Shown here: piece after piece, positions 44,519 to 53,187 of the stretch
Numbering within the stretch: the stretch's first letter is position 1
Layout of the letters: every line of letters starts with the position of its first letter
From: Fluviicola sp.
GTDB taxonomy: Bacteria; Bacteroidota; Bacteroidia; Flavobacteriales_D; Crocinitomicaceae
Length of the DNA stretch: 64,000 nt
Direction: 5' to 3'
Assembly (NCBI GenBank): GCA_002734085.1
Contig: NVXV01000014.1
Span: 1-64,000 of the forward strand
Position numbers and translations under genes: made by a program
The notes under the pieces: model-generated
What the model was told of the DNA's origin: nothing
The model's database searches: none
The model's input: the letters and a program-made list of their open reading frames with translations, nothing else

Positions 44519-47500
44519 ATGAAAACGGATCAAAACTATTTAATTGTTTTAGCTTCATTGTTGGCATTCAATTTTAACATAATTGTAAAAGCACAGGAGA
44601 GTTTAGTTAATGAAGATAGAAAAAGAGAGAGTACTTTGTGTTTTATAGAAAATAAAGGACAGTTTAAAGATGATCAAATACTCTATAAATTTTCTTCACA
44701 AGGGCTCAATTTATTAATTTCAGAAGGGGGAGTTACTTTTCAATTGTTTAAGAAACAAAAGGAAAAAGAGGAAGGTAAAAATACAAGTAGTAACTTAATG
44801 CTTAGAAATGCTATTATTTCTGTTGAAACTATAAAGCTAGATTTATTTAAAGGAAAAATTGAAAAAGAGAATATCATTCCGCAAAATAAATTAAATTCTT
44901 ATTTCAATTATTTTTCTCCAAAAACTCCAGATGGTGTAAAAGAAGTTAAAAAATTTCAAAATCTTTTAATCAAAGATGTTTACAAAAATATTGATTGGAA
45001 ATTTTATATTTCAAAGGAAGGGTATTTGAAATATGATTTTATTGTAAGAGAAGGGGGAGACTATAAGGATATTTTACTTCAATACTCTTCGCTTAGCCCT
45101 TTAAATATTTCTGAAAAAGGAGAATTAATTCTACAAACAAATATTGGTAAAATTAAAGAGAATAAGCCTGTTAGTTTTTATAAAAACAGAGAATTAGAAA
45201 CAACATTTAATATTCGTTCTCAAGAAAGAAAGATAACAGAAAAGAATACAATTTACAAGTCTTTAATTTATTTTAAAATCGATTCAAATGTCAATGAAGA
45301 TTTATTCAATTCTGAATTAGTAATTGATCCACAGATAAATTGGTCAACATTTTTTGGTGGTACAAGTAATGATGAGTTTCAAGAACTAAAAAGTGATAGT
45401 CAGGGAAACTTATATGGCGCGGGTTTAACCTGGTCAAATGATTTCCCTACTCAGGATGCAGGGGTCTATTATAAAGGAAATATTGATGGAAATCGAGATA
45501 TAGTAATTTCAAAGTTCAATAATGATGGAGAATTGATATGGTCTACATATTATGGAGGTTCCTCCATAGATGAAGGGCATTCACTAGAAATTGACTATAA
45601 CGATAATCTTTTTGTTACTGGTGTCTCCATATCAAATGATTTCCCGTTAGAAGACGTGGGAGGGTATTTCCAAAATTTTGGTGGTGTGATGGATGCTTTC
45701 GTTTTGAAGTTTGATTCAAATGGAAATAGAATATGGGCCACTATGTTAGGTGGCTCGGGTGCTGATGTTGGCAATTCAATTGCTTCAGATTCTGATGGAA
45801 ATATAATTGTTGTTGGTTGGACTTCATCTACAGATTATCCTACCGAAGACCTTGGAGGAACTTCATTTTTTGAGGGAAACTATACCTCTATGCAAGATAT
45901 ATTCATTACTAAATTTAATGCAGACGGAACAATGTATTGGTCAACCTATTTTGGAGCAGCAAATGATGTTGCAAAGTCTGTTGATACTGATAGTAATAAC
46001 TCCATATTTATTACGGGTGCAACTTCAGATTGTTCTGGTAGTTGGACATTTCAAGATGGAGGCGGATATTTTCAAAATAGTCATCCAGGAGGACAATGTG
46101 ATAAGACTTTTATTTTGAAGTTCTCTGAGATTGCTGAATTGCAATGGTCTACTTACATCGCTGGATCCGGTTTTGATATAGCTAATTCCATTATAGTAGA
46201 TAAAAATGATGATGTTATTTTATTAGGACATACTAATTCTCTAAATTTTCCAACAATGGATAATGGTACTTTTTTTCAGCCCACAAATGCTGGGGGAATG
46301 GATCTATTTATCTCTAAATTTGATAATATTGGAGAAATGATTTGGTCAACATATTATGGAGGGGAGGGGCAAGATGTTACAACAACTACTGATAACTTGA
46401 GTTTTTCTGAGTGTAATAATATTTATTTATTAAATCGAACAAATTCAAACAATTTACCCTTTCAAATTCCATTTGATGGTGGATCCTATAGTCATACTAT
46501 AAATGGTGGTGCAAACGATAAGTTTCTTTCTGTTTTCTGTCCTAATGGAAACTTGTTTTGGAATACATATTTAGGTGGAGATGGGGATGAAAATAAAGGA
46601 GCTATTGATGTCGATGTGAATGATAATATTTTTATATCAACAACATTGGATGCTAACTCTGCAAATGCTTCATCTTATCCTATTGTAAGTTCAGGTTCAA
46701 GTTTTCAAGAGAATAATTTAATTGGTGATGAAGATATTTATTTGATGAAAATAGTACAGGGGGAAGAAGATCATGAAATCACGAAAACAGATGTTAGTGC
46801 TTGTGGAGGTTGCGATGGAGCTGCATCTATTTCTGTTGAAGGATTGTGCTTACCCATATCTTATTATTGGAGCAATGGAGAGTCAACTATCGGTAGTGAT
46901 CAGTATTCTAATTCTATTTCGGGATTATGCGCTGGTACATACAGTGTAACCATCGTTAGCTTTTGCGATTCAATTGTGGACAGTATAGATGTTATAAGTG
47001 TTGGAGACGAACCAGATCTAACATTATCTGCAACAGATGTAACTTGTTATGGATTTGACAATGGGTCTGCTACAGTAGAGGCAGTTGGAAATAATCCTTT
47101 TACTTATGAGTGGATTCAGATTCCTAGCACAGATAGCATTGTAGAAAACTTATCTCCTGGAAATTATATTGTTGAAGTAACTGATAATAATGGTTGTACT
47201 TCAATTGATTCTATTGAAGTATTTGAGCCAGATTTATTGGAAATATCTTTAAATTCAACTCCAACAGATTGTAATATTAATAATGGTACGGCTCAAGTCA
47301 TTCCCGTTGGTGGAACGAGTGGCTATTCATTTGAATGGAACCCAGGTGGATATGTAACTGCTAATATTTCTAGTCTAGGTGAAGGAACATATAGTGTTAT
47401 CGTAACAGACGATAATGGTTGTCAAGCAATTGATTCTGTAATTGTTGAATCTTTGAACTCACCTATCATTTCAATCGACTCATTATCTGATGTGTCTTGT

Positions 47501-48439
47501 TGGGGAGGTTCAGATGGTTATGCATCAATTAACGTGAATGGCGGAGTTCCGAGTTATGATTTTCAGTGGTCACCTTCCGTTAGTACTACGAATACAGCAA
47601 GTGGATTATCAGCTGGAACTTACATTTTAGTTGTTACTGATAATTCAGGGTGTGAGGCGATAGAGGAGGTAATTATTGCTCAACCTGATTCAATATCAAT
47701 AATTAGTAATGTTGTTGAATCAGACTGTGGTCAAGAAAATGGTTCAATCGAAGTGTTTGGAAATGGAGGTACATCACCATATACATATAACTGGTTGCAA
47801 ACCATTGGAGATAGCTCTTACGTTGATAGTTTAAGTATTGGTAATTATCAATTAGAAATCGTCGATGATAATGGATGTTCTCAAAATTTCAATTTCACAG
47901 TTGATGTATCAAATATTCTTGATGTAGAAATTGTTCCCAGTACTATAACAATTGAGGAAGGTGGAAGTATCGATCTTGAATCTTATGTAGATCCTTTTTC
48001 TACAGGGTTAACTTACGAATGGTTTCCAACGGAAGGACTAAGCTGCTTAGATTGCTCTAATCCAATAGCGTCGCCAGATCAAACTACAGCTTATACTTTA
48101 ATTGTATCTTCAATTGATGGGTGTGTATCACAGACATCAGTTGTAATCAATGTAATTCAAAGTTGTCAAGGAACATTTTTGCCATCAATGTTTTCACCAA
48201 ACGGAGATGGAAATAACGATCACTTTTGTTTGCTATCAGACTGTGTTATTCAAATGGAGTTGAAAATTTATGATCGATGGGGGGAACTTTTGTTTACATC
48301 ATCTTCAGTAAATATATGTTGGGATGGAACTTATAGGAATGAATTGGTTGAATCTGGATCATATGTGTATAAATTAAATGCAGTGTTGAATACGGGAAAA
48401 TCGGTTAAAAAATCAGGAAATGTTACAGTTATTTATTAA
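44519..48439 (+). CDS. SBBP/SprB-repeat adhesin (DUF7948 N-terminus) with cysteine-type T9SS type B sorting domain
   Basis: 1306 residues; signal peptide about 1-25. The N-terminal domain opens with CFIENKGQFKDD (about 40), followed by SBBP-type propeller repeats (about 275-745; WSTFFGGTSNDE, WSTYYGGSSIDE, WATMLGGSGADV and others). Unlike its upstream paralogue it then carries about five SprB repeats (about 750-1125; TDVTCYGFDNGSATV, GTYSVIVTDDNGC). The GLSCLDCSNPIASPDQTT box and a cysteine-type sorting domain (FSPNGDGNNDHFC, IYDRWGELLF, CWDGTYRNE) end the protein. A PorP/SprF gene follows after 14 bases. It therefore looks like a hybrid of the adhesins at 33134 and 41038. Confidence 0.9.
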   Translation: MKTDQNYLIVLASLLAFNFNIIVKAQESLVNEDRKRESTLCFIENKGQFKDDQILYKFSSQGLNLLISEGGVTFQLFKKQKEKEEGKNTSSNLMLRNAIISVETIKLDLFKGKIEKENIIPQNKLNSYFNYFSPKTPDGVKEVKKFQNLLIKDVYKNIDWKFYISKEGYLKYDFIVREGGDYKDILLQYSSLSPLNISEKGELILQTNIGKIKENKPVSFYKNRELETTFNIRSQERKITEKNTIYKSLIYFKIDSNVNEDLFNSELVIDPQINWSTFFGGTSNDEFQELKSDSQGNLYGAGLTWSNDFPTQDAGVYYKGNIDGNRDIVISKFNNDGELIWSTYYGGSSIDEGHSLEIDYNDNLFVTGVSISNDFPLEDVGGYFQNFGGVMDAFVLKFDSNGNRIWATMLGGSGADVGNSIASDSDGNIIVVGWTSSTDYPTEDLGGTSFFEGNYTSMQDIFITKFNADGTMYWSTYFGAANDVAKSVDTDSNNSIFITGATSDCSGSWTFQDGGGYFQNSHPGGQCDKTFILKFSEIAELQWSTYIAGSGFDIANSIIVDKNDDVILLGHTNSLNFPTMDNGTFFQPTNAGGMDLFISKFDNIGEMIWSTYYGGEGQDVTTTTDNLSFSECNNIYLLNRTNSNNLPFQIPFDGGSYSHTINGGANDKFLSVFCPNGNLFWNTYLGGDGDENKGAIDVDVNDNIFISTTLDANSANASSYPIVSSGSSFQENNLIGDEDIYLMKIVQGEEDHEITKTDVSACGGCDGAASISVEGLCLPISYYWSNGESTIGSDQYSNSISGLCAGTYSVTIVSFCDSIVDSIDVISVGDEPDLTLSATDVTCYGFDNGSATVEAVGNNPFTYEWIQIPSTDSIVENLSPGNYIVEVTDNNGCTSIDSIEVFEPDLLEISLNSTPTDCNINNGTAQVIPVGGTSGYSFEWNPGGYVTANISSLGEGTYSVIVTDDNGCQAIDSVIVESLNSPIISIDSLSDVSCWGGSDGYASINVNGGVPSYDFQWSPSVSTTNTASGLSAGTYILVVTDNSGCEAIEEVIIAQPDSISIISNVVESDCGQENGSIEVFGNGGTSPYTYNWLQTIGDSSYVDSLSIGNYQLEIVDDNGCSQNFNFTVDVSNILDVEIVPSTITIEEGGSIDLESYVDPFSTGLTYEWFPTEGLSCLDCSNPIASPDQTTAYTLIVSSIDGCVSQTSVVINVIQSCQGTFLPSMFSPNGDGNNDHFCLLSDCVIQMELKIYDRWGELLFTSSSVNICWDGTYRNELVESGSYVYKLNAVLNTGKSVKKSGNVTVIY

Positions 48440-48453
48440 TTAAAATTTAGGTT

Positions 48454-49491
48454 ATGCAAAATTTATTTAGATTAATTATTTTGGTGGCTTTTAGCACAAA
48501 TTTTGCCTTTAGTCAGGATATTCATTTTTCACAAATGAAATATTCACCATTAAATTTGAACCCTGCGATGGCTGGTGCTGAACAAAACCTCCAAGCTGTT
48601 GTAAATTACAGAAACCAGTGGAGTAGTATTGTTTTCCCATTTCAAACTATTGGAGCTTCATTCGATATGAGATTCAAAGAAAAAAGATCAAGTAAAGGGT
48701 TTTTAGCCGCAGGATTGAATCTTTTTAATGATCAAGCAGGAGACATTCGGATGACCACTACTAATGTTAGCTTAAACCTAGCATACCATTTGCGCTTAAA
48801 TAATTTAAGTACACTTGGTGTTGCAATTCAAGGTGGTTTAGGTCAGAGAGGAATAAATCCTGAAAACGGAACATGGTCTAATCAATTCAATGGATCTGGC
48901 TTTAATACGAATATGTCAAGTGGTGAAAATTTTGAACAAATGAATTTTAGCCATTTTGATGCAGGAGCAGGGTTTGTATATCACTACAGAAAGAATGAAC
49001 GATATATGAGAGGGAATGATCAATTTTCTTTAACCGCAGGTATTGCGGCTTTCCACCTTAATAGGCCTAGTTCCACTTTTTTATCAGGAGGGGAGGACGA
49101 TCTGGCTATTCGTTATACAGGATTCGTAAACGCAGATATTGGGATAAGTAATACAAGTTTATCCTTGGTACCAGCAATATACTACAATCTACAAGGACCG
49201 CATCAAGAGTTGTTAGGAGGAACTTATTTCCGAATAATGGTAATAGAAGGATCAAAAATAACGGGATTTATTAAAGAGCTTGCATTATCTTATGGTGCTT
49301 TTTATAGGGTTGGAGACGCTTTTGTTAACAAATTACTTATTGAATATTCTAATTATTCATTAGGAATATCGTATGATATTAATGCTTCATCACTAGCGAC
49401 AGCGTCAAAAGGAAGAGGTGGAGTAGAATTTTTCCTGAGGTTTGTCTTACCAAATCCATTTGGGTATTCTTCTAAGGCGAGAATTAATTAA
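48454..49491 (+). CDS. PorP/SprF family T9SS outer membrane protein (paralogue 3)
   Basis: 345 residues with a signal peptide (about 1-21, ending AFSQ) and the family start DIHFSQMKYSPLNLNPAMAGAEQ. It sits immediately downstream of the SBBP/SprB adhesin and is the closest relative in the window of the protein at 36523. Both follow an adhesin with a cysteine-type sorting domain, so the pair probably recognises that sorting-domain subtype. Confidence 0.92.
   Translation: MQNLFRLIILVAFSTNFAFSQDIHFSQMKYSPLNLNPAMAGAEQNLQAVVNYRNQWSSIVFPFQTIGASFDMRFKEKRSSKGFLAAGLNLFNDQAGDIRMTTTNVSLNLAYHLRLNNLSTLGVAIQGGLGQRGINPENGTWSNQFNGSGFNTNMSSGENFEQMNFSHFDAGAGFVYHYRKNERYMRGNDQFSLTAGIAAFHLNRPSSTFLSGGEDDLAIRYTGFVNADIGISNTSLSLVPAIYYNLQGPHQELLGGTYFRIMVIEGSKITGFIKELALSYGAFYRVGDAFVNKLLIEYSNYSLGISYDINASSLATASKGRGGVEFFLRFVLPNPFGYSSKARIN
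49414..49491 (+). repeat. Conserved 78-base 3' end of PorP/SprF paralogue 3
   Basis: Partner of the repeat at 37486-37563. Only four bases differ, three of them in one short patch, and both copies end at the stop codon. Confidence 0.85.
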
Positions 49492-49596
49492 TTGTATAAA
49501 TTCTTCAACGGATTTTATTTAATTTACGTAATGTTTAAAAGTATATCTGATTTATCTTAAATTTGAAGAAGAATACTTTTAAAACTGACTTAAATT

Positions 49597-50622
49597 ATGA
49601 AACATTTATTTGTCTTCTTAATATCTTTAATTACGTTAATGAGTGTGAGAGCGCAAGACGTCCATTTCTCTCAAATGAAATTTTCACCATTTACTGTTAA
49701 TCCAGCTTTGGCAGGGTTGGAGAATGATATAAGAGCAATTGTAAATTATCGTTCTCAATGGAATAGTGTAGCTGCGCCTTTTACAACTATTGGTGCTTCC
49801 TATGACATGCGTATTTTTGAAAGCAAGAACGGAGGATTTTTAGCTGGTGGTCTAAATTTTTATCATGATGTTGCTGGAGATATGAAAATGACTACTTCGA
49901 ATGTGAATTTAAATGTTGCTTATCATTTAGCGATTAATAGTGAAAGTTCTTTTGGAGCTGCTATTCAGGTTGGTTATGCTCAAAGAGGAATAGGAACAAC
50001 AGATGGGAGCTGGGAAAGTCAGTATGATGGATCCTCGTTTAACAGTAATATTGCAAGTGGAGAAAGTTTCGGGAATATGAATTTTGGTCATTTAGATGCT
50101 GGAGCAGGATTTGTTTATAATTATGACTCAAGAAGAAATAATAATTTTTCAAGCGAAGGTTTCTCTTTAACGGCAGGAATTTCAGCTTTTCATTTAAACC
50201 AACCTGATTATTCTTTTATCGTTGGTGGAGAAGATGATTTGCAAATGCGTATAGCTGGATTTTTACAATCTGAATTTGCCATTGGTGATACTAAATGGGA
50301 ATTGATGCCTGCATTATATTATCAAAGACAAGGAGGACATCAAGAAATTTTTGGTGGTACGTATTTTAATTACAATATTCGATCAGGTTCTCAGCGTACA
50401 GGATTTGTTGAGAATTTTTCAATTGGCTATGGTGCTTTTTACAGGTTTGGAGATGCTTTTGTAAATAAAATACTAATTACTTACTCTAATTACAGTTTAG
50501 GATTCGCTTATGATGTAAATGTATCCTCTTTAACTCAAGCTACAAGAGCCAGAGGTGGCTTAGAGTTTATGCTTCGTTATGTGTTTGATAATAGTACAAG
50601 AAGTAGGGCTAGAATAAACTAA
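49597..50622 (+). CDS. PorP/SprF family T9SS outer membrane protein (paralogue 4)
   Basis: 341 residues with a signal peptide (about 1-19, ending VRAQ) and the opening DVHFSQMKFSPFTVNPALAGLE. It has the same barrel layout as paralogues 2 and 3 but is clearly more diverged and ends ...YVFDNSTRSRARIN. It is second in a tandem pair with a 105-base spacer. A TAAATTTG at 49558-49565 could be its own -7 box. The tandem may supply one partner for each of the two SBBP adhesins upstream. Confidence 0.92.
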   Translation: MKHLFVFLISLITLMSVRAQDVHFSQMKFSPFTVNPALAGLENDIRAIVNYRSQWNSVAAPFTTIGASYDMRIFESKNGGFLAGGLNFYHDVAGDMKMTTSNVNLNVAYHLAINSESSFGAAIQVGYAQRGIGTTDGSWESQYDGSSFNSNIASGESFGNMNFGHLDAGAGFVYNYDSRRNNNFSSEGFSLTAGISAFHLNQPDYSFIVGGEDDLQMRIAGFLQSEFAIGDTKWELMPALYYQRQGGHQEIFGGTYFNYNIRSGSQRTGFVENFSIGYGAFYRFGDAFVNKILITYSNYSLGFAYDVNVSSLTQATRARGGLEFMLRYVFDNSTRSRARIN

Positions 50623-50680: not shown

Positions 50681-51484
50681 TTAAAAATTTAAACTGATTC
50701 CTGCAGAAAACGGATAATATTCTGGACCCTTATTATTTTCGAATAATGGAGTTAAAGCATAATTAGCAAATGCGGTAAAACTTCCCACTCCCATCCGAAC
50801 ACTTGCATCAACTAAAAAAGGTGAAATGTGATAGTGTCCACGATTGATGTCTTTTCGATTTTGATCATCTACGCTATATTTTTGTTTTACTCGTGAACCA
50901 ATTCTATAACTCACTACAGCACCTACAGAGAAATGAAAACTTTTATCTGGGTCCTTACCAGGCATAAACGTCAGGTAAGCTGGAACACTTATATAACTGG
51001 TGTTTAAAAAATTCTTATCGAATGTTTTAATGCTATCAGGTGCAGAAAAAATAGTTGTATCATTATAAGATAAAGTAGAAGTAGTACTCTTAAAAGCATA
51101 ACGATTAAATCTAAAGCCTAATCCCGTCATAAGTCTAAAGTGTTCTGTCCCTAATTTTTGATTGAACTCAAGAATATTGAGATTAATCATAAAACTTTTT
51201 GCATAATCCAGTTCGAGATAGACGTTATTTGGGTCACTATTTATCTCAAATCCTTGAGATGTTGAATAACCATTTATTCCGAACTCAATTCCTCGCCAAT
51301 GATTAACATCCCAATTGTTATCTTTCTTGACTTCAATACTATCTCCCTCACCATGAATTGTAATTATTTTTCCTTTGTAAGAAATACGAGTTGTATCTTT
51401 TGATTCCTCTTTTTCTTCTTGTCCAAATGAACTTATTGAGATCATTAAAATGGACGCTGTTAATGCAATAAATTTTAATTTCAT
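50681..51484 (-). CDS. Outer membrane beta-barrel protein, likely target of the adjacent ECF sigma factor
   Basis: 267 residues with a signal peptide (about 1-21, ending SSFGQ) and an acidic linker (EEKEESKDTT). Antiparallel strands follow, resembling the PorT-like barrels common in this phylum, ending in the aromatic C-terminus FSAGISLNF expected for outer membrane insertion. Specific function is unknown. Its upstream region carries the same two-part promoter as the ECF sigma operon 1.6 kb away, which links it to envelope-stress-type control. It is separated from the anti-sigma gene by 129 bases, so it is a separate transcript. Confidence 0.8.
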   Translation of the reverse strand: MKLKFIALTASILMISISSFGQEEKEESKDTTRISYKGKIITIHGEGDSIEVKKDNNWDVNHWRGIEFGINGYSTSQGFEINSDPNNVYLELDYAKSFMINLNILEFNQKLGTEHFRLMTGLGFRFNRYAFKSTTSTLSYNDTTIFSAPDSIKTFDKNFLNTSYISVPAYLTFMPGKDPDKSFHFSVGAVVSYRIGSRVKQKYSVDDQNRKDINRGHYHISPFLVDASVRMGVGSFTAFANYALTPLFENNKGPEYYPFSAGISLNF

Positions 51485-51504: not shown

Positions 51505-51535
51505 TGCAAGACGGGTGAGTGTCTAAAATGTTACA
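51505..51535 (-). promoter_or_regulatory. ECF-type promoter of the outer membrane barrel gene
   Basis: On the minus strand TGTAACATTTT (51535-51525), exactly 11 bases, then CGTCTTGCA (51513-51505). The same two blocks with the same spacing precede the ECF sigma gene. CGTC is the classic form of an ECF -10 element and TGTAAC a plausible -35. The start codon is 20 bases further on. Confidence 0.75.
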
Positions 51536-51613
51536 GGTGAAAATATATTATTTTGTTTTTTATGAAATTTCGCTTGAAATATGCTGAAAATCTGACTTTT
51601 ATAAACAGGGAAA

Positions 51614-52675
51614 TTACTTTTTGTTTATACGCTCTATTTTGAAACTACCAAGCTGAAAAATAGTAGAAGTTGATTGCTCTGTTTTCGTTTGCGCAATTAC
51701 TTCTTGTCCTGTTAGTGATTTACTTCCTTTATTTATTAGTGATAAAATATTTGGTCGTCCGTTATCTGATAAAAGTTCTTTTTCTTTTGCCTTCTCCCCT
51801 AGGAATGCTAAAAGAGATGGTGGTGTTTTCATTTTTTTATTAGACTGCGTTTTTAATTCTTTATTCTCATCTTCTTTATTATTCAAACTAGCTATAACTT
51901 GATTCAACTCAGGATTCTTTTTGAGAATAGCATTTTCTCTTCTTTCAGAAATGTTGTTAAAATGATTCTTTCTATTGTTGTCATCAGATTTTGTTGAATC
52001 GCCAACTTTATTCTTATCAAATTCACTTTCAGTTTTATTGTTAACCACAAAGCTCATATTACTGTTTTGTTCTTCAGTATTTTTATTTACTAAAAAGTTA
52101 GAAACATCGAAAGTGCCTTCTTTTTGAATGACTGGTCTTAAGTCTGGTCGATTATTTTCAAATGTATATTTTGGACTGATGTTAATAGTGTTTTGTAATA
52201 AGGCATTTAAGATAAGCCCAATTATAAGAATGGCAGCAATTCTTGGAGACCAATAAAATAATCCTTTTGATTTATCACTATTTGCTATCGAGTGAAGTGA
52301 TTCTTTCTCTTTGAAAATCGCAACTGATGGCTTTAATGAAAGCTTAGAGAATTGATTAAACTCTAAATTAAACTCAGGGTTTTTAGAAATAAAATCAGTT
52401 ACCTTATTTTGACCTGAAGTATCTAAATCTCCCTCATGATAAGCAATAAAGAAGTGTTTTCTATTGGCTGGAGTAATAGAGTCAAAAGTTAATAGTTCTT
52501 TATCGATATGTTCTGTAATTTCATCTTCTAGAATTGGAAAATCGTCAATCAGGTCAGTGTCAAGATCAGGGTTTGATGCTAGGAAAGAGTTTAATTCATA
52601 TAGCAATTCATCAGAAAGATTTCCCTCTGACAAATCGAGTAAATAAGCCTCGTAGTTACTTCTATTAATTCTCAT
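51614..52675 (-). CDS. Probable transmembrane anti-sigma factor with duplicated N-terminal module
   Basis: 353 residues. The cytoplasmic part holds two related units: YEAYLLDLSEGNLSDELLYELNSFLASNPDLD (8-39) and HFFIAYHEGDLDTSGQNKVTDFISKNPEFN (74-103), i.e. L-x-E-G-x-L, then F-L/I-x-x-N-P. This pattern recurs in Bacteroidota anti-sigma-like proteins. One membrane span follows (about 143-161), then a low-complexity Asn/Lys-rich periplasmic region and a conserved-looking tail (FQLGSFKIERINKK). It overlaps the ECF sigma gene by four bases (ATGA), the usual sigma/anti-sigma arrangement. There is no zinc-finger anti-sigma motif and no FecR domain, so it is assigned by position and topology. Confidence 0.65.
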   Translation of the reverse strand: MRINRSNYEAYLLDLSEGNLSDELLYELNSFLASNPDLDTDLIDDFPILEDEITEHIDKELLTFDSITPANRKHFFIAYHEGDLDTSGQNKVTDFISKNPEFNLEFNQFSKLSLKPSVAIFKEKESLHSIANSDKSKGLFYWSPRIAAILIIGLILNALLQNTINISPKYTFENNRPDLRPVIQKEGTFDVSNFLVNKNTEEQNSNMSFVVNNKTESEFDKNKVGDSTKSDDNNRKNHFNNISERRENAILKKNPELNQVIASLNNKEDENKELKTQSNKKMKTPPSLLAFLGEKAKEKELLSDNGRPNILSLINKGSKSLTGQEVIAQTKTEQSTSTIFQLGSFKIERINKK

Positions 52676-53151
52676 ATTACAGCATCAATTTTACCAATGA
52701 ACTTTTGTAAATGTTTTCTAGCTCTGTAGATATATACTTTTACTTGTGTTTCATTTATTTCTAATATATCACCAATTTCTTTGTAATTATACCCTTCATA
52801 ATCCTTGAGTAAAACAGCTGAACGTTGAATCTCACTCAACTGATTTAATGCTTTGTGCAAAACCTCATTAACATCGTGATTCTGAGTTGTCGTATAAGGA
52901 TCTATATGGTGGTCTTCTATTGAAATTACTTTTGACTTACGAGTATAATCTATAAAACCATTGTATAGTGTTCTAAATAAGTACGACTTTACTTTTTCAA
53001 AATTAATTGTGTCTTTTTTAATCCAAACTTTTTCAAATGCGTCTTGAACGAAATCCCTAGAAATAGATTCGTTTTTGCATAATTTTAATGCAAATCGATA
53101 CAGTCGATCACTGAATTCTTCAACGGCGATATGATACTCATTTGTGTCCAA
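52672..53151 (-). CDS. ECF RNA polymerase sigma factor
   Basis: 159 residues with sigma regions 2 (FSDRLYRFALKLCKNESISRDFVQDAFEKVWIKK, about 13-46) and 4 (LNQLSEIQRSAVLLKDYEGYNYKEIGDILEI, about 105-136, with VKVYIYRARKHL). The only start is TTG at 53151; no in-frame ATG precedes region 2. Its promoter ends six bases upstream of that TTG, so the message would be nearly leaderless. The promoter matches that of the outer membrane barrel gene, which suggests autoregulation. The anti-sigma gene overlaps its end. Confidence 0.92.
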   Translation of the reverse strand: MDTNEYHIAVEEFSDRLYRFALKLCKNESISRDFVQDAFEKVWIKKDTINFEKVKSYLFRTLYNGFIDYTRKSKVISIEDHHIDPYTTTQNHDVNEVLHKALNQLSEIQRSAVLLKDYEGYNYKEIGDILEINETQVKVYIYRARKHLQKFIGKIDAVI

Positions 53152-53156
53152 GTCTG

Positions 53157-53187
53157 TGCAAGACGAATAACTTTTAAAAATGTTACA
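53157..53187 (-). promoter_or_regulatory. Autoregulatory ECF-type promoter of the sigma operon
   Basis: On the minus strand TGTAACATTTT (53187-53177), an 11-base spacer and CGTCTTGCA (53165-53157), identical in blocks and spacing to 51535-51505. Both copies have an extra C before TGTAAC. The remainder of the 215-base spacer upstream of the pabB-like gene shows no other clear element. Confidence 0.75.

What the first reader, a model, noticed from the sequence alone, without database searches (positions are those of the whole stretch)
51505..53187. Two copies of an exactly spaced ECF promoter link an ECF sigma operon and a nearby outer membrane barrel gene
TGTAACATTTT-N11-CGTCTTGCA occurs on the minus strand upstream of the sigma factor (53187-53157) and the barrel gene (51535-51505). 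The 20 block bases are identical and the spacers unrelated in sequence but equal in length. CGTC is typical of ECF -10 elements. This gives a directly readable motif for a small regulon: sigma, duplicated-module anti-sigma and barrel.
Basis: partly seen in the sequence, partly recalled or inferred. Interest (0 to 1): 0.65.

Follow-up and report, generated by a model that had tools for sequence, protein, structure and literature searches.

The report
Twin ECF promoters wiring sigma and barrel
A small stress-type sigma factor appears to switch on its own operon and a neighbouring outer membrane barrel gene from two matching promoters, and this pairing is kept in many Bacteroidota, which suggests a simple envelope-sensing feedback loop that can be tested.

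Summary
In detail: TGTAACATTTT-N11-CGTCTTGCA occurs twice, exactly as stated, before an ECF sigma gene and a PF13568 barrel gene, and nowhere else in the 4.03 Mb genome at up to 3 mismatches. Comparison supports the interpretation. The wider core TGTAAC-N16/17-CGTC precedes sigma in 33/40 relatives' loci and 68/80 named loci, barrel in 46/86 (70/86 with the first -10 base free) and 42/58, anti-sigma in 0/41 and 0/79. Of 27 barrels with no sigma gene within 5 kb, 25 keep it with that base free (9 as CGTC). A longer consensus (not matching this genome's own two sites) gives 66 sites in 118 genomes: 19 before sigma, 19 barrel, 8 TonB_C-like genes, 20 elsewhere, against 20 in the reversed control. 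A shorter core shows no excess (58 against 59); position distinguishes it. This is most likely an autoregulated sigma/anti-sigma/barrel module widespread in Bacteroidota, resembling a split form of Bacteroides' dual membrane-spanning anti-sigmas. Transcript starts, sigma dependence and barrel to anti-sigma contact are inferred.

The parts
53157..53187 (-). ECF promoter (inferred) of the sigma operon: -35 TGTAAC 53187-53182, 16 bases, -10 CGTC 53165-53162
   Evidence: exact match; same core before sigma in 33/40 relatives' loci and 68/80 named loci
52672..53151 (-). ECF sigma factor, 159 aa, TTG start 10 nt after CGTC
   Evidence: Sigma70_r4_2 7.7e-18, Sigma70_r2 3.8e-9; the TTG aligns with the first Met of relatives
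51614..52675 (-). anti-sigma factor (inferred), 353 aa; its start overlaps the sigma stop (ATGA)
   Evidence: no Pfam family above cutoff, no NCBIfam match; order sigma then anti-sigma recurs; AF2 model
52559..52669 (-). anti-sigma module 1, residues 3-39
   Evidence: hhalign to module 2, probability 98.8
52367..52477 (-). anti-sigma module 2, residues 67-103
   Evidence: helices 72-80 and 86-98 in the model
52187..52267 (-). membrane helix (predicted), residues 137-163
   Evidence: long hydrophobic helix in the model; Ala147 and Ala148 invariant in 38 sequences
51617..51748 (-). C-terminal helix plus three strands, residues 310-353, consensus FxxGxFxxxRKxxK
   Evidence: conserved tail; pLDDT 60-68 for residues 311-330, 81-89 for 331-353
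51505..51535 (-). ECF promoter (inferred) of the barrel gene: -35 TGTAAC 51535-51530, 16 bases, -10 CGTC 51513-51510
   Evidence: exact match; same core before barrel in 46/86 relatives' frames, 70/86 as NGTC, and 42/58 named loci
50681..51484 (-). outer membrane beta-barrel protein, 267 aa: signal-like helix 2-20, strands 31-54, then barrel; ATG 25 nt after CGTC
   Evidence: PF13568 9.3e-8, 32.8 bits, cutoff 27; AF2 pLDDT 85.5; Foldseek hits to Ail, OmpA and OmpX type barrels, best E 5.3e-4

Best explanation
The two elements are promoters of the same ECF sigma factor. One drives the sigma/anti-sigma operon (autoregulation), the other the barrel gene. Shown here: the sequence elements, their position, their recurrence before sigma and barrel and not before anti-sigma, and the predicted make-up of the proteins. 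Inferred: the sigma is held at the inner membrane by the two-module cytoplasmic part of the anti-sigma; a signal about the outer membrane reaches the anti-sigma through its disordered periplasmic tether and conserved C-terminal fold; released sigma then transcribes its own operon and the barrel gene, and in some relatives a small TonB_C-like secreted protein. The barrel would be the main product, and possibly also the outer membrane partner that resets the loop (see the section on the most novel reading; this last step is not part of the confidence given here).
For: Only two sites in the genome at up to 3 mismatches. Core before sigma 33/40 and 68/80, barrel 46/86 and 42/58, anti-sigma 0/41 and 0/79 (window and motif-chosen loci left out of the first figures; second figures; four loci are in both sets). 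Opposite strand 0 or 1 per set; Markov resamples mean at most 0.02 per set for CGTC and 0.12 for NGTC. Barrels not next to sigma keep the element with a free first -10 base: 33/39 as counted (one of the 39, G111, is in fact linked), and 25/27 with over 5 kb known on both sides. Longer consensus: 66 sites in 118 genomes, 46 of them before sigma, barrel or TonB_C-like genes, 20 others, reversed control 20. Sigma and barrel occur together: 80 both, 3 sigma only, 11 barrel only, 24 neither of 118 genomes, at barrel E below 1e-12 (78, 5, 5, 30 at 1e-20). In one clade of 22 genomes the first -10 base is not C at 20/22 sigma and 21/22 barrel promoters; two genomes of one genus have AGTAAC at both. 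CGTC lies 10 nt (sigma) and 25 nt (barrel) before the start codons.
Against: No transcript data. Seven of 44 sigma genes (four even with a free first -10 base), 40 of 87 barrels (16 with a free base) and, in the named loci, 12 of 80 sigma genes and 16 of 58 barrels lack the core in the stretch scanned. G077 has both genes and neither promoter. TGTAAC-N16-CGTCTT is no commoner over 119 genomes than its control (58 sites listed, control sum 59), and the loosest core in this genome is below its control (7 against 12). The longer consensus does not match the window's own two sites. The agreement of the -10 base is in effect one joint event and that of spacer length is not significant on a tree, so the Fisher values overstate it. 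Anti-sigma function is inferred from position and architecture; no known anti-sigma family or fold matched.
Confidence: 0.85

Rival explanations
1. The elements are ECF promoters but are read by another ECF sigma of the genome, or by several with overlapping specificity.
For: The genome encodes a second sigma that matches the same profile (G000:C22:57613, E 8.5e-51). The authors of PMC9723704 leave open that the CGT-box motif of F. psychrophilum serves several sigma factors (passages).
Against: Placement before this sigma's own operon in many genera; sigma and barrel co-occur.
Confidence: 0.1
2. A rival for the second layer only, compatible with the wiring above: the barrel is just an output, an effector that repairs or remodels the outer membrane, and the anti-sigma senses something else through its C-terminal fold.
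For: The barrel gene is unlinked in many genomes yet mostly keeps the promoter, as expected of a plain target. Known ECF regulons contain envelope effectors (recalled).
Against: Co-occurrence and adjacency in distant Bacteroidota suggest more than a casual target but do not exclude this.
Confidence: 0.5
3. Chance similarity or a repeat with no promoter function.
For: Short cores are not enriched genome-wide (7 against 12; 58 against 59 in 119 genomes).
Against: Spacers differ while core bases are kept; 0 of 124 anti-sigma genes (two overlapping sets) carry it, most sigma genes do.
Confidence: 0.01

Closest known systems
[quoted passage not shown]
   Same: Bacteroidota; sigma and anti-sigma genes together; cytoplasmic domain, membrane helix, long disordered tether; a beta-barrel belongs to the system; the own operon is among the main targets (PMC13088901, passages read)
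   Different: In Dma the barrel is the C-terminal domain of the anti-sigma itself. Here the anti-sigma ends in a small helix-strand fold and the barrel is a separate gene with its own promoter. No fusion was seen in the 14 class loci examined. The ECF group of this sigma was not determined, and homology to Dma was not tested.
Sigma/anti-sigma pair M0N98_03761/03760 of Phocaeicola vulgatus, said there to resemble EcfO of B. fragilis
   Same: Bacteroidales sigma with an anti-sigma linked to an outer membrane barrel; induced on toxin treatment, likely by envelope stress (PMC9308784, passages read)
   Different: Barrel fused to the anti-sigma
NF058625, GFO_1088 / PG0214 family ECF sigma
   Same: Best NCBIfam match of the sigma, 116.2 bits over residues 1-155
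   Different: Below the curated cutoff of 130, as are three relatives: near it, not a member
SM6 promoter motif of Flavobacterium psychrophilum
   Different: Listed targets are T9SS parts and others; no barrel twin in the passages read; sequences not compared
Bacillus subtilis SigW/SigM-type promoters (TGAAAC, CGTA; recalled)
   Same: Similar -35 and -10 and spacing (recalled); the sigma matches the SigM_subfam model below its cutoff and SigW structures by sequence
   Different: Other phylum; anti-sigma type and regulon differ (recalled)

Membership tests
ECF sigma factors (sigma-70 family) | regions 2 and 4, short protein | tested here: met
   Pfam r2 and r4 above cutoffs, 159 aa
ECF sigma factors (sigma-70 family) | bipartite promoter, autoregulation | tested here: inconclusive
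   sequence and recurrence support it; no transcript or binding data
NF058625 GFO_1088/PG0214 sigma | score above 130 bits | tested here: not met
   116.2 bits; three relatives 116.1-127.6
Dma dual membrane-spanning anti-sigma | C-terminal beta-barrel in the same protein | tested here: not met
   353 aa ending in a helix plus three strands; no fusion in 14 class loci, one of them with the anti-sigma cut by a contig end
Dma dual membrane-spanning anti-sigma | membrane helix and disordered periplasmic tether | tested here: met
   prediction only: helix 137-163, then pLDDT 40-63 over residues 171-290
Dma dual membrane-spanning anti-sigma | N-terminal domain binds the cognate sigma | not testable with these tools
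   gene order and overlap only
Dma dual membrane-spanning anti-sigma | cognate sigma of group ECF21 | not testable with these tools
   no ECF classifier at hand
PF13568 OMP_b-brl_2 | score above cutoff, barrel fold | tested here: met
   32.8 bits against 27; barrel model
Known anti-sigma domain families in Pfam | match to a curated anti-sigma model | tested here: not met
   no such match at E up to 0.1

The most novel reading that the evidence does not exclude
A split cross-envelope sensor: an inner membrane anti-sigma with a long tether reads the state of a separate outer membrane barrel through its conserved C-terminal strands, and the barrel's own supply is set by the sigma, so that the cell measures outer membrane assembly by a product of the same loop. 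It would be a two-gene counterpart of the fused Dma proteins.
Probability: 0.3. Interest if true: 0.75.

Novelty: new variant of a known kind. Interest (0 to 1): 0.55.

Why it matters
How Bacteroidota watch their outer membrane is largely open (recalled). A regulon this small, with a promoter that can be read by eye and recurs over many families, gives a defined reporter and a defined sensor candidate in species that can be cultured. It also gives a promoter rule (TGTAAC-N16/17-GTC close before a gene) that may help annotate ECF targets in the phylum.

Tried and rejected
Third target in this genome: of the five further core sites, one lies 30 nt before a CAAX-type protease gene (C1:58787; PF02517), three lie inside open frames of 152, 642 and 826 aa, and one 113 nt before an 82-aa frame. 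The protease has no match at E 1e-15 in the 29 other genomes searched and the site count is below the control, so it is not claimed.

Co-variation as proof: promoters of sigma and barrel agree in the class of the first -10 base (C or not) in 61/65 genomes and in spacer length in 55/65, but the tree shows 2 and 3 changes for the base and 7 and 7 for the spacer, with too few independent pairs. It is reported as one joint event.

Specificity residues in sigma: the clade without the fixed C differs at many columns, which is confounded by descent; nothing is claimed.

Fused barrels: long anti-sigma frames (577-738 aa among those listed, whose list was cut) turned out to hold extra copies of the module or over-long frames, no barrel (14 loci).

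TonB_C-like third target in this genome: the four TonB_C proteins found lie in frames of 228-831 aa, so the small form seen in relatives was not found.

Fold search of the anti-sigma: no hit at E 0.001. Sequence search against solved structures: nothing convincing for anti-sigma or barrel, ECF sigmas for sigma. Defence library: nothing. Literature: one paper in the held library holds TGTAAC, sigma factor and Bacteroid together, on Bradyrhizobium. The listings of searches (titles and starts of abstracts, top rows only) showed no report of this module; PMC12045153, PMC12578637, PMC7406223, PMC12596196 and PMC12611786 were searched by term only. The PNAS 2024 Dma1 paper is not held. A report elsewhere is possible.

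Rows chosen or dropped: one search set aside stretches under 200 bases (1 anti-sigma, 2 barrels) and included the window and 11 loci (L153-L163) fetched because a motif match lay there; one search repeats the count without these (sigma 33/40, anti-sigma 0/41, barrel 46/86). The 87 barrel frames include second copies in some genomes. One search leaves out genomes with sigma or barrel score under 170 bits; its pair tables use the 65 of 81 genomes with both promoters. It calls G111 unlinked although its sigma and barrel fragment lie on one contig; G099 has a second, weaker barrel beside its sigma. One search did not list 127 genomes without a match, nor all matches. Alignments A1, A2, A3 hold 38, 44 and 30 sequences that I picked from 46, 90 and 50 found. 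The lists were typed with sigma E up to 1e-57. Two sites that the script counted under sigma (21 sigma, 6 TonB_C) are by position the TonB_C-like promoters (G031:C1:155384, G028:C19:234353); the text uses 19, 19, 8, 20. One of the 20 others (G080:C23:47517) lies 1.8 kb after a sigma promoter near a contig end and is probably a barrel promoter. The 266 sites come from overlapping loci, some fetched twice or for the motif. Control sums (59, 20) and the 58 rows were added up by hand.

Full report
What is there. In the whole 4.03 Mb genome no other place matches with up to 3 mismatches, and the reversed pattern has none. The element at 53157-53187 lies 10 nt before the TTG start of a 159-aa ECF sigma gene; the one at 51505-51535 lies 25 nt before the ATG of a 267-aa PF13568 barrel gene (distances counted from CGTC). 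Between them is a 353-aa gene whose start overlaps the sigma stop. The TTG start is supported by the alignment, where it falls on the first Met of relatives.

How often it recurs. The core TGTAAC-N16/17-CGTC was sought from 200 bases before to 120 after the opening of each frame. In loci of relatives fetched around barrel matches, it precedes 33/40 sigma genes and 46/86 barrel frames (36/40 and 70/86 with the first -10 base free) and 0/41 anti-sigma genes (with the window and 11 loci fetched for a motif match the figures are 37/44, 47/87, 71/87 and 0/45). In 80 named loci chosen only by similarity of the sigma protein the counts are 68/80 sigma, 42/58 barrel, 0/79 anti-sigma. First-order Markov resamples of the same stretches gave means of at most 0.02 per set (0.12 with the free base), the opposite strand 0 or 1. 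Four loci are in both sets. The named loci include Flavobacteriales, Crocinitomicaceae, Prolixibacteraceae, Marinifilum, Draconibacterium and Carboxylicivirga records.

What is constant. In 74 sigma and 69 barrel promoters found in 81 genomes, mostly C precedes GTC, usually an A follows three bases later, and a T-rich stretch after TGTAAC is common (that search required TGTAAC and GTC, so those letters are constant by construction).

Linked and unlinked barrels. Of 81 genomes with both genes, 42 have them in one fetched stretch and 39 were counted as not; the barrel promoter (free first -10 base) is present in 36/42 and 33/39 (G111 among the 39 is in fact linked). Of the 39, 27 have over 5 kb known on both sides of the barrel, and 25 of these keep the promoter, 9 of them with CGTC. 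This suggests that the barrel is a target in its own right and not a passenger of the operon.

Regulon size. TGTAAC-N16-CGTCTT alone is no commoner over 119 genomes than its reversed control (58 against 59). The longer consensus TGTAAC-N16/17-CGTC-N-TAC gives 66 sites in 118 genomes against 20 in the control; it does not match the window's own two sites, which read CGTCTTGC. After one correction (see Tried and rejected), 19 face sigma, 19 the barrel, 8 a small secreted TonB_C-like protein, and 20 other places, so the excess over the control is accounted for by three kinds of gene. Of 266 core sites in the fetched loci, 121 precede sigma, 92 barrel, 14 TonB_C-like genes, 7 others, and 32 no frame of 70 aa starting within 90 nt; these loci were chosen around sigma, barrel or motif. 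The TonB_C-like protein was recognised by PF03544 in one example and scored below the cutoff in another.

Coupled change. In one clade of 22 genomes the first -10 base is not C at 20 sigma and 21 barrel promoters. In G092 and G103, of one genus, both promoters read AGTAAC. This fits one sigma reading both, but the first is in effect one event, and neither base nor spacer association is significant on the tree.

The proteins. The anti-sigma has two copies of a helical module (I..NyEa..LD..EGnL......FL...P.L), confirmed by hhalign; some relatives have more. Then come a predicted membrane helix (137-163), a disordered stretch, and a C-terminal helix with three strands (310-353; the last 23 residues at pLDDT 81-89) whose consensus FxxGxFxxxRKxxK recurs in the family. 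No known family or fold matched. The barrel model is confident overall (pLDDT 85.5) with a poorly placed N-terminal group of strands that carries a conserved DTTR motif; Foldseek finds Ail, OmpA and OmpX type barrels.

How it most likely works. General knowledge of ECF systems (recalled): the anti-sigma holds the sigma until a signal releases it, and the sigma then drives its own operon and targets. Shown here: the promoter-like wiring. Inferred: the sensing part is the periplasmic tail of the anti-sigma and the signal comes from the outer membrane. For the fused relatives, vesiculation and a response to envelope-damaging toxin are reported (PMC13088901, PMC9308784, passages read). A loop in which the sigma makes the barrel, and barrel assembly restores the anti-sigma, would be homeostatic. 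A short likeness between the anti-sigma tail and the barrel's N-terminal strands (12 columns, probability 43.6, a single comparison) is a lead only.

Relation to the known. It works like Dma/Das systems in its parts but is not filed as a member, since the defining fused barrel is absent. The sigma is near NF058625 but below its cutoff. In F. psychrophilum a CGT-box ECF motif with mapped starts has been described (PMC9723704, passages read); whether it is the same element could not be checked.

Limits. No expression data.

Noticed in passing
window 53151; L125, L126, L127, L129 (same genus); L128, L154 (same family): The sigma gene starts with TTG or GTG in all seven, and in four of them only 10-12 nt after CGTC, so the transcript would be nearly leaderless with a weak start codon; relatives elsewhere mostly use ATG.
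   Followed up: partly
L064, L066, L081 (= L206), L103, L136, L138, L140, L147, L152, L265, L267, L269, L344: Small secreted TonB_C-like proteins of 111-125 aa carry the same promoter core and sometimes lie next to the sigma operon.
   Followed up: partly
L262-L276: The cytoplasmic module of the anti-sigma varies in number between families of the class, from two to about six copies counted by eye.
   Followed up: partly
G000 contig C1:58787-58812: A core promoter-like site 30 nt before a CAAX-type (PF02517) protease gene that has no match in 29 other genomes searched; possibly chance.
   Followed up: partly
L043, L162: In two genomes of one genus (G053, G038) a similar site precedes a large secreted protein that by eye is of the same family, a possible lineage-specific target; the L162 site also lies inside a long frame of the other strand.
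   Followed up: no
window 44519-50622: Two tandem PorP/SprF family genes on the plus strand, downstream of a 1306-aa protein with repeated stretches.
   Followed up: no
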